A DNA stretch of 64,000 bases, taken from Sphingomonas sp. GTDB lineage: Bacteria; Pseudomonadota; Alphaproteobacteria; Sphingomonadales; Sphingomonadaceae. The notes under the pieces were generated by a model. The model saw only the letters and a program-made list of their open reading frames with translations, was not told the DNA's origin and searched no databases. Positions within the stretch are counted from its first letter, which is position 1; every line of letters starts with the position of its first letter. Positions 21,102 to 24,955 of the stretch are shown one piece after another. A program made the translations under genes and the position numbers. The stretch lies in the NCBI RefSeq assembly GCF_013812825.1, contig NZ_JACCSU010000068.1:1-64000 (forward strand). The letters run 5' to 3'.

Positions 21102-22460
21102 CTAGCGCGAGGCGAGGCGCACCGGCGCGTCGCCGGCGACCGAGCGCACGAAACAGCTTCCGCCCGCCCGCCGCACCGACTCGCAAAGGCTCTTCGCGTC
21201 GCTGGGGCTGGAGAAGCCCTTGACCGAAAGGCGGTAGACGAGTCCGTTCCGGCTGTTGAAGCGCGCGCTCATCGGCGTGTAGCCGCGAAGTACGGAATGG
21301 CGCCTGGAAGCGGCGTTCCACGCGGCAGCGACCCGCTGCGGCGAGCCATAGGCGCCGAGTTGCACGACGGCGGTCGAGTTGCCCTCGCGGCGGTTGAACG
21401 AGGCCGGACGAGCGGGCTTGAGCTTGGCGGTGAAGCTGGCCGAGAGAGCCTTGGGGCGAGCGGACCGCTTGGGCTCGACATAAGCCGGCTCGAATTCGGG
21501 AGCGGTTTCGACGAACGCCGGTACGGGCGCCATAGCGGGCGCCGGAGCGGCGGCTTCCACGACCGGCGCGGGGGCTGGCTCGGGAGCCGGCGCGGACGCG
21601 AGCTGGTCGAACTGCGGCGCATAGGCCTGCTCCGGGACCGGCGGCGGCGCGTAATAAGCGGCGACCTGCTGCGGCGGCTGGACCGGCGGAGCGGCCTGGG
21701 CGCTGCGGGTCGAAGCGCCGCGAAGCGCGAGTCGAGTGGGCTGGCCGGGGTCGCCGGCGACCGGCTTGACGCCCGTCAGTGCGGCAACCTGGTCGGACGC
21801 GAAGCGGGGCTTGGCGAACGCCATCCACTCCTGGATCCGGGCATCCAGCAGGTCGGCCGACACGTCCTGGGCGGCGATCGTGCGGGCGGCGTCCCAATCG
21901 CCCGACAGGGCGTAAGCGAGAGCAAGGTTCTGGCGCAGCCTGGCATCGGCTCCGGGCTGGCGCGCGGCGGCCTCGAGCAGGCCGGCGGCTTCCTGCGGCT
22001 GGCCGGCGAGCGCGAGGGCAAGGCCGTAATCGGCCGGCTCGAGCATTCCGCGGGCTTCGCCGAGCAAGGCCAGAGCTTCGCCATTGCGGCCCTGGGCGAT
22101 CTCGACCAGCGCGAGCTTCAGAACCACCTGCGGCTGGTTGGCAACCAGGGCCAGCGAGTCGCGATAAGCGGCTTGCGCCGAGGCAAAGCGGCCCGAACCG
22201 AAGTAGATATTGCCGAGCAGCGCCCGGAAGCCGGCGTCGTTGGGGCTTTTTTCGACCGCCCGCTCGGCAAGGCTGAGCGCGGTTGCAAAATCATTGTCGT
22301 TGAGAGCGGCCAAAGCCCGCATCGCGAGGCCGATGTCGCCCCTGGCGTCCTTGCCTCCGAAGGAGGTCGTGCTGCGCCCGGCCGGAGTGGCGCAACCGGC
22401 GATGACCGAAGCCAGAGCGATTGCCGACAGAGCGGAGCCGAAGCGGAGCGGATTTGACAT
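21102..22460 (-). CDS. TPR lipoprotein with C-terminal SPOR domain
   Basis: A 452-residue envelope protein. The lipobox IAGC is at about residues 20-23; residues 45-205 form TPR-like helical repeats (ALNDNDFATALSLAERAV, SPNDAGFRALLGNIYFGSG); residues 235-350 are a Pro/Ala-rich linker that could span peptidoglycan; the last 80 residues are a SPOR domain (AVVQLGAYGSPQRV ... VYRLSVKGFSSPSDA). SPOR domains bind denuded glycan strands at division septa. It is last in a tight minus-strand unit after parA and a small acidic gene (4-bp gap), suggesting the ParA module acts on a septal or cell-wall target. Confidence 0.85.
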   Translation of the reverse strand: MSNPLRFGSALSAIALASVIAGCATPAGRSTTSFGGKDARGDIGLAMRALAALNDNDFATALSLAERAVEKSPNDAGFRALLGNIYFGSGRFASAQAAYRDSLALVANQPQVVLKLALVEIAQGRNGEALALLGEARGMLEPADYGLALALAGQPQEAAGLLEAAARQPGADARLRQNLALAYALSGDWDAARTIAAQDVSADLLDARIQEWMAFAKPRFASDQVAALTGVKPVAGDPGQPTRLALRGASTRSAQAAPPVQPPQQVAAYYAPPPVPEQAYAPQFDQLASAPAPEPAPAPVVEAAAPAPAMAPVPAFVETAPEFEPAYVEPKRSARPKALSASFTAKLKPARPASFNRREGNSTAVVQLGAYGSPQRVAAAWNAASRRHSVLRGYTPMSARFNSRNGLVYRLSVKGFSSPSDAKSLCESVRRAGGSCFVRSVAGDAPVRLASR

Positions 22461-22464
22461 CAGA

Positions 22465-23166
22465 TTATCCCTTGCGGTTGGCCTTCACGGCCATTGCGTC
22501 GAGCTCCGGCATGGAGCCGAGCAGCGAGTCGAGCGCATCGGTGACCAGCATCTGGGCCGAGCGGCCGCTGACGGCGCAAGCCAGGCGAAGTTTCAAGTGG
22601 CGGCCCGGGTCGAGGCGCAGAGTGAACGCCGCCTTGGCCTTGCTTCCGGCAGCCGCTCGCGGAGCGGAGACTCGGCGGGCGGCGACGGGGACGACTGGGG
22701 CGACGGTGGCACGGGCGGGCGGCAGCTCGACCACAACCGGCGGCTCGCTGGCCGCCCGGTCATCGGTTTCCGCTTCGGCCTCGTAGAGCTCGGCGGTCTC
22801 GTCGACCTCCTCGCCTTCCTCGGTCAGGTCCTCGTCCGGCACGTTGAGCCGGCCGGCGATCTCCTTGTGCTGGCTGTGGACCGGCGACTGAACCGGCGAC
22901 TGAACCGGCGATTGCACGGGGGTCAGCGCTGCGACCGGGTTGCGCAGCGGCTGCTCCTCGAGCTCCTCGCCGAACGCATCGTGGGTCTCGTCGCGCGGTG
23001 CGGAGGCCGGCTTGGGAGGCTCGAAGCCCATGTCGTCCCAGCCGAGGTCCTCGAGCGCGCCGCCGCCCTGGCCGAAGCCCTGGGGCCGCATCGCCGGGCG
23101 AGCGGCGCCCTTGCGAGCCAGCAGGCCGGAGGAGAGCGAGGCGAAAGCCTTGGGTTCGCTTTTCAC
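22465..23166 (-). CDS. ParA partner with C-terminal ribbon-helix-helix-like region
   Basis: A 233-residue protein. Residues 1-175 are low-complexity and mostly acidic (EELEEQP, EDLTEEGEEVDETAELYEAEAET) with a QSPV tandem repeat; the last 60 residues (AAFTLRLDPGRHLKLRLACAVSGRSAQMLVTDALDSLL) look like a strand-helix-helix (RHH) DNA-binding or dimerisation unit. It follows parA by 12 bp and precedes the SPOR lipoprotein by 4 bp. Acting as the adaptor or DNA partner of ParA is inferred from position and architecture. I do not recognise a named family. Confidence 0.75.
   Translation of the reverse strand: MKSEPKAFASLSSGLLARKGAARPAMRPQGFGQGGGALEDLGWDDMGFEPPKPASAPRDETHDAFGEELEEQPLRNPVAALTPVQSPVQSPVQSPVHSQHKEIAGRLNVPDEDLTEEGEEVDETAELYEAEAETDDRAASEPPVVVELPPARATVAPVVPVAARRVSAPRAAAGSKAKAAFTLRLDPGRHLKLRLACAVSGRSAQMLVTDALDSLLGSMPELDAMAVKANRKG
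22879..22914. repeat. Three 12-bp tandem repeats inside the ParA-partner gene
   Basis: Three near-identical 12-bp units (AACCGGCGACTG on the plus strand) encode the QSPV repeats of the partner protein. In-frame unit length means copy-number change would alter linker length without a frameshift. Confidence 0.85.
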
Positions 23167-23178
23167 TGGACCGTTCCC

Positions 23179-23892
23179 TTACTGGCCGGCCACGCGGCGG
23201 CCGAAGCCGCCAACCGGACGAGGGGAATTCGGAGCCGCGGCTCCGGGAGCGGCGAACACGGTGCGGCGGAAATTCTTTTCGAGACGGTCGGAAATATAAT
23301 CCCACAAGTCGACGACCTCACGGGCCGAGCGGCCGTTGGGATCGACTTCCATGACGGTTCGGCCGTCGATCATCGATGCCGCGTAATCGGTGCGGTGATG
23401 GAGCGTGACGGGGGCGACGGTGCCGTGCTGCGACAAGGCGACCGCAGCTTCGTAGGTGATCTTGGCCTTGGGGGTGGCGCCGTTGACAACGAAGATCAAA
23501 GGCTTCCCGGCGCGGTCGCACAGATCGACGGTCGCACCGACGGCGCGAAGGTCGTGCGGGCTCGGACGGGTCGGGATGACGATCAGCTCGGCAACGGCGA
23601 TGACGCTCTGGATGGCCATGGTGATCGCCGGAGGAGTGTCGATCACCGCGAGCCGAAAGCCCTGCTGGCGAAGAACTTCAAGGTCGGAAGCAAGTCGGGC
23701 GACCGTCGTCTGAGCGAAGGCCGGCATGTCCGCCTGGCGCTCGTTCCACCAATCGGCGAGGCTTCCCTGCGGGTCGATGTCGATCAGGCAGACCGGGCCC
23801 GCGCCCGCCAGCTGCGCCTGCACCGCAAGATGTCCGGACAAGGTCGTCTTTCCCGACCCGCCCTTCTGCGATGCCATTGCCAGAACGCGCAT
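23179..23892 (-). CDS. Orphan ParA/MinD-type ATPase
   Basis: A 237-residue partition-type ATPase. The deviant Walker A is KGGSGKTT at residues 10-17, Walker A' IDIDPQGS follows at about 37-44, and Walker B is LAVIDTPPA. The C-terminal 25 residues are a Pro/Ala-rich tail (GAAAPNSPRPVGG) not typical of the family. Such ATPases position plasmids, chromosomes or protein clusters by ATP-controlled binding to DNA or membrane. No ParB-like gene or parS site is near; the neighbours are an RHH-like protein and two SPOR proteins, so cargo positioning rather than chromosome partition is more likely. Confidence 0.9.
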   Translation of the reverse strand: MRVLAMASQKGGSGKTTLSGHLAVQAQLAGAGPVCLIDIDPQGSLADWWNERQADMPAFAQTTVARLASDLEVLRQQGFRLAVIDTPPAITMAIQSVIAVAELIVIPTRPSPHDLRAVGATVDLCDRAGKPLIFVVNGATPKAKITYEAAVALSQHGTVAPVTLHHRTDYAASMIDGRTVMEVDPNGRSAREVVDLWDYISDRLEKNFRRTVFAAPGAAAPNSPRPVGGFGRRVAGQ

Positions 23893-23946
23893 GCTTTTCC
23901 CCCGCCCAGTGACTTGCGTTGAGCGCCGGGAGTGACACTCAAGCCT

Positions 23947-23962
23947 CTAAAATCTGGTTAAC
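23947..23962. promoter_or_regulatory. Possible CtrA-like site upstream of parA
   Basis: The sequence CTAA-N7-TTAAC differs by one base from the CtrA consensus TTAA-N7-TTAA(C). It sits in the 118-bp divergent region between parA and the Sel1-SPOR gene, 55 bp before the parA start. CtrA binding is a guess from this one match. Confidence 0.3.
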
Positions 23963-24010
23963 AATGGCACGACCGTGTTGCCCGGCGGGAACAGGTGGTT
24001 AGTGGACCCG

Positions 24011-24955
24011 ATGCAATCAGGAACGCGGATCTTTGCGCTGATGGCGATTGCGCTGGCCTTGGCTGCGCCCGCCAGCGCCCAGTCGGTGAAGGCGGGGATC
24101 GATGCCTGGCAGCGCGCCGACTATGACTCCGCGGTCAAAATCTGGCGGCCGCTCGCCGAGGCGGGCGATGCCGACGCCTCCTTCAACCTCGGCCAGGCCT
24201 ACCGGCTCGGCCGTGGAGTCCCGATTGGTCTCGCGGCTGCCCAGACCTGGCTCGAGCGGGCAGCGCGCAAGGGCCACCTCGATGCGCAGACGACGCTCGG
24301 CCTGCTGCTGTTCAACGGCGGCAACCGCATCAGCGGGCTGCGCTGGTTGAGAATGGCCGCCGAACAGGGCGAGCCGCGAGCGCTGCTGATCTACGGGACC
24401 GCATTGTTCAACGGCGATGGAGTCGTGCGCGATCCGGTGCTCGCCTACGCTTATGTCAGCCGAGCGGCGGCGCAGGGCCTGGCGCCGGCGCAAGCGACTC
24501 TCGCCGAAATGGACAAGTTGGTCCCGCTCGATGAGCGCCGGAAGGGCGTGGCGATGGCCCAGAACCTCGCCAAAGCTGCCGAGACGGAGCCTGCAAGGGC
24601 CAAGCAGCCAATTGCGCCAAAGCCGCGGGCCGGTGCAACGGCCGAATCCGCGCAAAAGTCCCCCGCCAAGACTGCGGTCAAGCCATCCGCGACTGGAGCG
24701 GAACCTGCACCGGCCAGGGCAAGCGGCCCGTGGCGGATCCAGCTCGGCGCCTTTTCCAGGCGTGGGTCGGCCGAAGCGCTTTTCAACAAGCTCGCCGGCC
24801 GCGGGCAGCTGGCTGGCCGGCGACCGTTCTATGTCGCCGCTGGAGCCGTCACCCGGCTCCAAATTGGGCCGTTCGAGAGCCGGGCCGCTGCGGCCGCCGC
24901 GTGCGCGGCGCTGTCCCGCCAGGGGCAGCCCTGCTTCCCCGTCGCCGCGAAGTAA
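24011..24955 (+). CDS. Sel1-repeat and SPOR-domain exported protein
   Basis: A 314-residue protein with a signal peptide ending at ASAQS (residue about 25), three to four Sel1/TPR-like repeats (ADASFNLGQAYRLGRGV, DAQTTLGLLLFNGG, RALLIYGTALFNGDGV), a Lys/Ala/Pro linker, and a C-terminal SPOR domain (PWRIQLGAFSRRGSAEAL ... TRLQIGPFESRAAA). The ATG at 24011 was chosen; a GTG nine bases upstream is nearly as good. It is divergent from parA and mirrors the TPR-SPOR architecture of the lipoprotein at the other end of the parA unit. A role at the septum or in peptidoglycan binding is inferred. Confidence 0.85.
   Translation: MQSGTRIFALMAIALALAAPASAQSVKAGIDAWQRADYDSAVKIWRPLAEAGDADASFNLGQAYRLGRGVPIGLAAAQTWLERAARKGHLDAQTTLGLLLFNGGNRISGLRWLRMAAEQGEPRALLIYGTALFNGDGVVRDPVLAYAYVSRAAAQGLAPAQATLAEMDKLVPLDERRKGVAMAQNLAKAAETEPARAKQPIAPKPRAGATAESAQKSPAKTAVKPSATGAEPAPARASGPWRIQLGAFSRRGSAEALFNKLAGRGQLAGRRPFYVAAGAVTRLQIGPFESRAAAAAACAALSRQGQPCFPVAAK

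What the first reader, a model, noticed from the sequence alone, without database searches (positions are those of the whole stretch)
21102..24955. Orphan ParA module linked to two SPOR-domain envelope proteins
Four genes sit together: a ParA-type ATPase without ParB, an acidic partner ending in a ribbon-helix-helix-like region, a TPR lipoprotein with SPOR domain (all in one tight minus-strand unit with gaps of 12 and 4 bp), and a divergent Sel1 protein that also ends in SPOR. SPOR domains bind denuded peptidoglycan at septa; ParA ATPases position cargo. Together they suggest a system that places cell-wall or septal factors using DNA- or membrane-bound ParA. The repeat architecture (helical repeats, Pro/Ala linker, SPOR) occurs twice, once per side. 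I know of no described system with this exact composition.
Basis: partly seen in the sequence, partly recalled or inferred. Interest (0 to 1): 0.65.

Follow-up and report, generated by a model that had tools for sequence, protein, structure and literature searches.

The report
ParA–adaptor module beside SPOR wall proteins
A DNA-positioning motor of the kind plasmids use has become a fixed chromosomal module in Sphingomonadales bacteria, kept next to two genes for cell-wall (SPOR) proteins, and in some other Alphaproteobacteria its adaptor protein is itself a predicted membrane-spanning SPOR protein, which suggests a physical link between the nucleoid and the dividing cell wall.

Summary
The four genes are real and correctly described. 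The block ParA > acidic partner > TPR-SPOR lipoprotein, with divergent Sel1-SPOR, is conserved: among 80 named close relatives TPR-SPOR follows in 78 and Sel1-SPOR diverges in 73. The ParA is not an orphan: its partner carries an N-terminal peptide, LLARKGxAxPA, exact in 78 of 80 relatives, that recurs on the small ribbon-helix-helix (RHH) partners of related plasmid ParAs. This is a chromosomal, exapted pair resembling plasmid ParF/ParG. The strongest support for a wall link lies outside the window: in at least 8 of 385 Alphaproteobacteria genomes searched the peptide sits on a predicted single-pass membrane protein ending in SPOR, right after ParA (six are the profile's seeds); 22 other SPOR loci fetched had neither ParA nor peptide. 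A CtrA-type box precedes ParA in 75 of 81 loci, against 0.7% of shuffles. Against obligate coupling: three genomes lack ParA and partner but keep both SPOR genes side by side, and the window partner has no membrane segment, so no route across the membrane is shown. Placement of septal factors is plausible, not shown. My paper searches found no description of it.

The parts
23179..23892 (-). ParA/ParF-type ATPase, 237 aa, Walker A KGGSGKTT, no N-terminal DNA-binding domain; C-terminal tail with GGFGRR conserved in close relatives
   Evidence: NF041546 160 bits, below its 180 cut-off; ParF 4dzz E 1e-13
22465..23166 (-). Adaptor (partner): N-terminal docking-type peptide, disordered acidic linker, C-terminal RHH
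23089..23142 (-). Docking-type peptide, partner residues 9-26 (ASLSSGLLARKGAARPAM); LLARKGxAxPA exact in 78 of 80 named relatives
23026..23052 (-). Second conserved short motif EDLGWDDMG, partner residues 39-47; DLGWxDMG in 77 of the 78 partners that fit the docking pattern
22516..22632 (-). RHH region, partner residues 179-217
21102..22460 (-). TPR lipoprotein with C-terminal SPOR domain (SPOR at 21144-21377)
24011..24955 (+). Sel1-repeat protein with signal-peptide-like start and C-terminal SPOR domain (SPOR at 24719-24943); divergent
23947..23961 (-). CtrA-type box TTAACCAGATTTTAG (TTAA-N7-TTAG) upstream of ParA; the only match in the window (0.02 expected)

Best explanation
The module is a chromosomal ParA-adaptor positioning system, exapted from a type Ib (ParF/ParG-like) plasmid partition pair. 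ParA-ATP binds the nucleoid; the adaptor's N-terminal LLARKG peptide docks on ParA and stimulates hydrolysis, with the basic Arg18-Lys19 as the likely finger; the C-terminal half decides what is positioned. In the window and most relatives that half is an RHH domain (DNA binding and/or dimerisation). In four other alphaproteobacterial families (eight genomes found) it is a hydrophobic transmembrane segment plus a SPOR domain, which would tie nucleoid-bound ParA to septal peptidoglycan. In Sphingomonadales the link to the wall would be indirect: the pair is kept between, and in the window's close relatives probably expressed under CtrA with, two exported SPOR proteins, so that nucleoid position and septal wall work are coordinated. 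Shown by sequence: the pairing, the shared peptide, conservation of the block, the membrane-SPOR adaptors, the box. Inferred: docking and ATPase stimulation, nucleoid binding, CtrA control, and that SPOR-marked septa are the cargo or landmark.
For: Docking peptide exact (LLARKGxAxPA) in 78 of 80 named loci; L081 has LQARKG, L110 has no partner. Loose pattern met in 17 of 17 order-level loci and 30 of 40 class-level loci; of the other ten, two are cut by contig ends, six show the peptide or a variant at the same place, L208 a poor one, L210 none. The same peptide plus an RHH-like end on plasmid partners: 8 plasmids looked at of 55 with the ParA; 5 fit the loose pattern (L221 with S for G), 3 by eye, L217 with an extra residue. 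Of 30 SPOR loci fetched with the membrane-SPOR profile, the 8 with an adjacent ParA all carry the peptide and the 22 without ParA all lack it; 6 of the 8 are the profile's own seeds, which had been picked for SPOR next to ParA, not for the peptide. The 6 seeds have a hydrophobic segment (Kyte-Doolittle 2.0-2.5); SPOR passed the Pfam cut-off in the 4 scanned. Three genomes (G183, G268, G287) carry both types, one ParA each. Nearest solved structure ParF; ParG among hits of the adaptor profile. ParG's flexible N-terminus stimulates ParF through an arginine-finger-like motif (PMC5389482, passages). CtrA-type box in 75 of 81 loci against 0.7% of shuffles. Neighbour counts; SPOR in 30 of 30 and 29 of 29 scanned.
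Against: G037, G041 and G044 lack ParA and adaptor but keep TPR-SPOR and Sel1-SPOR divergent and adjacent, so the SPOR pair can do without ParA. L110 keeps ParA and TPR-SPOR without an adaptor. The window adaptor has no membrane helix (maximum mean hydropathy 1.3). The Lys-Gly of the peptide is not universal: L198, L199 and L206 lack it. The CtrA box is absent in 15 of 17 order-level and 40 of 40 class-level loci. TTAAC-N6-TTAG occurs 4 times in the genome, no more than its control (6). No centromere-like repeat seen upstream (window only). The RHH domain suggests DNA as the cargo. CtrA is reported without negative effect on growth or viability when lost in Sphingomonas melonis (PMC8116508, passage).
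Confidence: 0.5

Rival explanations
1. A purely DNA-directed chromosomal partition or organisation module: the RHH adaptor binds one or more chromosomal sites and ParA moves or anchors that locus; the SPOR genes are only co-regulated neighbours.
For: RHH fold signal incl. ParG and omega repressor; invariant strand residues T182 and R184 in A1; same architecture on plasmids; SPOR pair survives without ParA; RHH-like ends, by eye, are the commonest partner type in the class loci.
Against: Genome already has a parA-parB pair and MipZ; no operator or centromere repeat seen; order-wide linkage to SPOR genes although flanks are lost; eight genomes have a TM-SPOR end in place of the RHH.
Confidence: 0.35
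2. The adaptor is mainly a transcriptional regulator of the divergent operons, with ParA as co-regulator; the whole is a CtrA-linked envelope regulon.
For: RHH proteins are often repressors (recalled); divergent promoter region; CtrA-type box.
Against: N-terminal peptide shared with plasmid partition partners; no conserved palindrome: the window's GAGTGTCACTC is in 0 of 80 relatives; the TM-SPOR version cannot be a promoter-binding regulator.
Confidence: 0.08
3. Two unrelated units (ParA pair and SPOR pair) are neighbours by chance or because an integrated plasmid par cassette happened to land between the SPOR genes.
For: ParA and adaptor are absent together in three genomes, leaving the SPOR pair; plasmid relatives exist.
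Against: Block kept across the order while the flanks changed; separate association of the same ParA family with SPOR through TM-SPOR adaptors.
Confidence: 0.07

Closest known systems
ParF/ParG (ParFGH) of plasmid TP228, type Ib partition
   Same: Small ParA without N-terminal DNA-binding domain (ParF is the best PDB match); downstream RHH partner with flexible N-terminal tail that in ParG stimulates the ATPase (PMC5389482 passages)
   Different: Chromosomal locus kept across an order; adaptor (233 aa) two to three times as long as the plasmid partners read here (80-115 aa), with extra conserved motifs; no centromere repeats found; operon continues into a SPOR lipoprotein; docking peptide unlike ParG's (recalled, not compared)
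ParA/MinD cargo-positioning systems with adaptor N-termini (McdAB, FlhG, ParC, MinD)
   Same: Partner interacts through a charged, disordered N-terminus while the rest binds cargo (PMC10241942 passages; PMC12204374 abstract)
   Different: No SPOR or peptidoglycan-binding adaptor in the passages seen; the term SPOR has 0 occurrences in the main text of PMC10241942
Chromosomal ParABS and MipZ of Alphaproteobacteria
   Same: ParA superfamily; the MipZ Pfam model matches this ParA over 53 residues (31.8 bits, above its 20.7 cut-off)
   Different: The genome has its own parA-parB and a full-length MipZ match elsewhere (355 bits); this ParA pairs with an RHH adaptor, not a ParB
FtsN/DedD-type bitopic SPOR proteins (layout recalled)
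   Same: TM-SPOR adaptors share the layout: cytoplasmic N-terminus, TM helix, Pro/Ala-rich linker, C-terminal SPOR
   Different: The N-terminus carries the ParA-linked peptide and the gene abuts or closely follows parA

Membership tests
Type Ib (ParF/ParG) partition system | ParF-size ParA lacking N-terminal DNA-binding domain | tested here: met
   237 aa, best PDB matches ParF 4dzz and 5u1g, E 1e-13, from residue 1 to 187-188
Type Ib (ParF/ParG) partition system | Downstream RHH partner gene | tested here: met
   Profile A2 matches RHH structures (labels recalled where the entry does not say so) incl. ParG 1p94 E 0.0055; two capsid proteins at E 0.08 look like chance. AF2 helices 187-200 and 204-217. 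All 7 Foldseek hits are RHH proteins (recalled), none with E below 1. Single-sequence Pfam and PDB searches were not significant
Type Ib (ParF/ParG) partition system | Partner N-terminus stimulates the ATPase via a basic finger | not testable with these tools
   Only conservation: LLARKGxAxPA in 78 of 80 named relatives. Invariance of K19/G20 in A2 is partly by construction, rows having been picked by a pattern with KG
Type Ib (ParF/ParG) partition system | Centromere repeats upstream of parA bound by the RHH protein | tested here: inconclusive
   No inverted repeats and only two short two-copy direct repeats in window 23860-24050; relatives compared by eye only
Type Ib (ParF/ParG) partition system | Carried by a plasmid | tested here: not met
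   In relatives it lies on contigs of up to about 2.8 Mb; 49 of the 54 genomes with a match have a single match. Filed as an exapted relative, not as a plasmid system
Chromosomal ParABS | Partner is a ParB CTPase with parS | tested here: not met
   Adaptor has no ParB_N hit at E <= 1; ParB_N proteins lie elsewhere, one beside its own parA
MipZ | Full-length MipZ family match | tested here: not met
   Match over profile 2-54 of 262 only, 31.8 bits though above cut-off; full-length match is at C76, 355 bits
SPOR-domain proteins | SPOR domain above Pfam cut-off at C-terminus | tested here: met
   Both envelope proteins; 30 of 30 and 29 of 29 homologues scanned match SPOR at E <= 0.01
SPOR-domain proteins | Binds denuded septal glycan | not testable with these tools
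   Recalled property of the family
CtrA regulon | TTAA-N7-TTAA-type box in promoter | tested here: met
   TTAA-N7-TTA[AG] in 75 of 81 (window and named relatives), 0.7% in shuffles; consensus from PMC9437464 passages; the window site ends TTAG, one base off
CtrA regulon | CtrA binds and controls the promoter | not testable with these tools
   no expression or binding data; presence of ctrA in this genome was not searched

The most novel reading that the evidence does not exclude
A ParA subfamily whose interchangeable adaptors share one docking peptide and whose cargo or landmark is the cell wall: nucleoid-bound ParA gradients are coupled across the inner membrane to SPOR-recognised septal peptidoglycan, directly through membrane-SPOR adaptors in some Alphaproteobacteria and indirectly through a CtrA-timed SPOR pair in Sphingomonadales.
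Probability: 0.35. Interest if true: 0.8.

Novelty: new variant of a known kind. Interest (0 to 1): 0.6.

Why it matters
How nucleoid position and septal wall synthesis are coordinated is a long-standing question. A protein with a ParA-linked peptide on one side of the membrane and a septal glycan-binding domain on the other would be a direct mechanical or spatial link, and the peptide gives a testable handle for finding adaptors of 'orphan' ParAs. The case also looks like a plasmid partition pair recruited to a chromosomal, lineage-wide role.

Tried and rejected
Rejected: that ParA is an orphan (adaptor peptide). Not supported: that a ParB elsewhere in the genome is its partner; one ParB lies beside its own ParA, next to an rsmG-like gene (name recalled). 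Two further ParB_N hits (C41, C43) were not followed up. Considered and dropped: an RHH operator; the palindrome GAGTGTCACTC in the window's intergenic stretch is in 0 of 80 relatives. Other proteins in the window's genome with the docking peptide: none at E <= 10 with a 29-residue query. Mistake corrected: one search used a pattern one base too long (0 hits); repeated as and, in the window. AlphaFold of the adaptor gave no strand and a mostly low-confidence chain (mean pLDDT 64); Foldseek had no hit below E 1. Papers: searches returned no paper; others (20 shown of 638; 20 of 79; 20 of 257; 20 of 29; 4 of 4; 10 of 1,107) returned listings, none of whose titles or abstract openings describes a ParA-SPOR module. 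Only open-access PMC text is held.

Selections and drops: the 80 named loci are the best 80 of 563; by title they are Sphingomonadales or unresolved Alphaproteobacteria/Pseudomonadota. The docking pattern was loose; A1, A2 and A5 rows were picked by a peptide pattern or by earlier hits, so invariance of the peptide within them is partly by construction; unselected counts are. A1 used 34 of the 38 loci that one search listed (L043, L046, L065, L109 left out), themselves a choice from the 80. A2 used 21 of 29 listed order- and class-level loci plus 3 of 8 plasmids. A3 used every third locus with a TPR-SPOR hit, but I left out L058, L081 and L102, whose ORF was short, so '30 of 30 SPOR' excludes them; A4 used every third Sel1-SPOR hit, none dropped. 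The tree used about one in six of the named loci, dropped L137, L138, L148, L154, L163, L165 and rows under 180 aa, and by oversight contained the window's own gene twice (L213, labelled classUnk). Start codons of homologues were guessed by script. One search stopped with a script error after two loci and was replaced. One search scored at most three candidates a genome and returned 30 loci from 160 genomes with a match, so 8 of 385 is a lower bound; its genomes overlap those. The list was cut.
Full report
OBSERVATION. Pfam gives AAA_31/CbiA for ParA, TPR and SPOR for the lipoprotein, Sel1 and SPOR for the divergent protein, all above cut-off, and only RHH_10 at E 0.12 for the partner. The SPOR search of the whole genome finds five SPOR matches, two of them here. 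The lipoprotein has a lipobox-like VIAGC; the Sel1 protein, started at 24011, has a signal-peptide-like start (sequence). Both SPOR proteins should therefore be exported (inference). Names of neighbouring genes (pyrB, ruvX, serB, miaA, ilvC, rsmG) are recalled from their sequences and come from no call.

CONSERVATION. A relative of the ParA is found in 54 of 61 close genomes, the own genome included, at E <= 1e-10, and in 39 of 240 class genomes at E <= 1e-40. Among 80 named loci (the best 80 of 563), TPR-SPOR follows in 78 and Sel1-SPOR diverges in 73, both in 71. Six of the nine incomplete loci end near the block (L056, L062, L064, L070, L105, L111; one search shows partial matches to the missing gene in L056, L062, L064, L070 and L105); three (L049, L092, L109) had no divergent Sel1-SPOR despite 6 kb of sequence. 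In 17 order-level loci TPR-SPOR follows in 17 and Sel1-SPOR diverges in 11; of the six others L117 is cut near its Sel1-SPOR, in L130, L132 and L133 Sel1-SPOR lies between adaptor and TPR-SPOR, and none was found for L126 and L131. In those 17 loci none of pyrB, ruvX, serB or miaA was found, so the block is kept where the flanks are not. SPOR was found in 30 of 30 TPR-SPOR and 29 of 29 Sel1-SPOR proteins scanned.

THE PARTNER IS AN ADAPTOR. LLARKGxAxPA stands near the N-terminus in 78 of 80 named loci; L081 has LQARKG, and in L110 the partner gene is missing and TPR-SPOR follows ParA directly. DLGWxDMG is in 77 of those 78. With a looser pattern the peptide is found in 17 of 17 order-level loci and 30 of 40 class-level loci; of the other ten, two end at a contig edge (L201, L212), six show the peptide or a variant at the same place (L185, L198, L199, L202, L206, L207; three of these, L198, L199 and L206, lack the Lys-Gly), L208 a poor one and L210 none. 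Fifty-five plasmid records carry a relative of the ParA at E <= 1e-40. I read eight: all eight have a small downstream reading frame with the peptide (five by pattern, three by eye, L217 with an extra residue) and an RHH-like end. A profile of 25 partners, three of them from plasmids, matches solved RHH proteins, ParG at E 0.0055 and omega repressor at 0.011 among them, and two capsid proteins at 0.08 that look like chance; the single sequence had only a chain labelled multidrug transporter at E 0.04. AlphaFold gives a mostly low-confidence chain with confident helices at 187-200, 204-217 and 220-231. All seven Foldseek hits are RHH proteins (recalled), but at E above 1. The best solved relative of the ParA is ParF. 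In ParG a flexible N-terminus stimulates ParF through an arginine-finger-like motif (PMC5389482, passages), and charged N-termini are the general adaptor element of ParA/MinD systems (PMC10241942, passages; PMC12204374, abstract).

MEMBRANE-SPOR ADAPTORS. In G061, G069, G183, G203, G268 and G287 the gene after ParA (abutting or overlapping in five, 40 bp after it in G061) encodes a 302-616 aa protein with the same N-terminal peptide, a hydrophobic segment and a C-terminal SPOR domain. They were picked because a SPOR match lay next to ParA; the peptide was then found in 6 of 6. SPOR was confirmed by Pfam in the four scanned. G183, G268 and G287 also have a second ParA with a typical RHH partner, and G069 and G203 a second ParA with an RHH-like partner whose peptide is degenerate. 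A profile of these six searched 385 class genomes; of the 30 loci returned, eight have ParA next to the SPOR gene and all eight carry the peptide (the six seeds, plus G302 and G383), while 22 have neither. The eight genomes fall in four families. The tree places the six seed ParAs within one group of eight rows (support 93/88) that also holds two RHH-type rows, so at least two changes of partner type are needed. The ParAs of the window's order, apart from family f5 and a plasmid-like second copy (L134), form one clade (99/99).

REGULATION. TTAA-N7-TTA[AG] lies within 180 nt upstream of ParA in 75 of 81 loci (window and 80 named), against 0.7% of dinucleotide shuffles; 2 of 17 at order level, 0 of 40 at class level, 0 of 7 on plasmids. 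In the window it is the only TTAA-N7-TTAG (0.02 expected). In the whole genome TTAAC-N6-TTAG occurs four times, no more than its control, so the evidence is the conservation, not the single site. The CtrA consensus TTAA-N7-TTAA is taken from PMC9437464 (passages). Loss of CtrA is reported to have no negative effect on growth or viability in Sphingomonas melonis (PMC8116508, passage). I did not search this genome for ctrA.

EVIDENCE AGAINST COUPLING. In three order-level genomes without this ParA (G037, G041, G044) the adaptor is absent too, and TPR-SPOR and Sel1-SPOR remain side by side and divergent (in G044 TPR-SPOR is cut by the contig end); in G047 and G055 only Sel1-SPOR was found in the stretch, G048 gave a short contig with a partial Sel1-type match and G033 nothing of use. 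So ParA and adaptor behave as a unit, and the SPOR pair as another. The window adaptor has no membrane helix, so a bridge to the exported SPOR proteins is missing.

OTHER ATPASES. The genome has a parA-parB pair beside an rsmG-like gene and a MipZ, so ordinary chromosome partition and division-site placement probably have their own ATPases.

CONCLUSION. The best-supported reading is an exapted ParF/ParG-type ParA-adaptor pair acting as a positioning module. A wall/septum role is favoured by the order-wide SPOR linkage and, independently, by the membrane-SPOR adaptors, and is weakened by the SPOR pairs that live without ParA. A DNA-only role is the main rival. Literature searches (listings capped as told under Tried and rejected) showed no description of a ParA-SPOR module.

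Noticed in passing
class- and order-level partners, e.g. L119, L121, L139, L148, L149, L152, L163: A C-x-C-[LMI] motif near the end of the RHH partner in 16 of 30 class-level and 9 of 17 order-level partners but 0 of 78 named close relatives; possibly a metal or redox site.
   Followed up: partly
window 23026-23052: Second conserved short motif EDLGW(N/D)DMG in the adaptors of close relatives (77 of 78), between docking peptide and RHH; perhaps a binding site for an unknown protein.
   Followed up: partly
window 23179-23256: The ParAs of the window's close relatives have a C-terminal tail with conserved GGFGRR, lacking in the plasmid relatives.
   Followed up: no
L184:5412-5933: A partner with the docking peptide but an HTH-like instead of RHH C-terminus (HTH_23, E 0.014, below cut-off): perhaps another adaptor type.
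   Followed up: partly
L183:4780-5472, L191:4662-5405: In one family (f48) a third gene of 230-247 aa follows the RHH adaptor; L183's copy has a weak PAS_5 match (E 0.0065, below cut-off).
   Followed up: partly
L205:3977-4432: A 151-aa reading frame after the RHH adaptor has a docking-like VLAVKGRAAP near its N-terminus and a C-terminal hydrophobic segment (KD 2.5): possible tail-anchored second adaptor. L200 has a similar-sized neighbour.
   Followed up: no
L134 (G012, contig of 6243 bases): A second, plasmid-like ParA with a small docking-peptide RHH-like partner (LTAGLVAIKGTAAPA) in a genome of the window's genus.
   Followed up: partly
upstream of Sel1-SPOR in relatives, e.g. L059, L061, L066, L084: A second TTAA-N7-TTAG box lies near the Sel1-SPOR start in several relatives; 13 of 81 loci have two or more boxes within 180 nt of ParA.
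   Followed up: partly
SPOR domains of TPR-SPOR, Sel1-SPOR and TM-SPOR proteins: All three kinds share an invariant pair of cysteines near the end of the SPOR domain in A3, A4 and A5 (C426/C436, C298/C308, C286/C296), possibly a disulfide.
   Followed up: no
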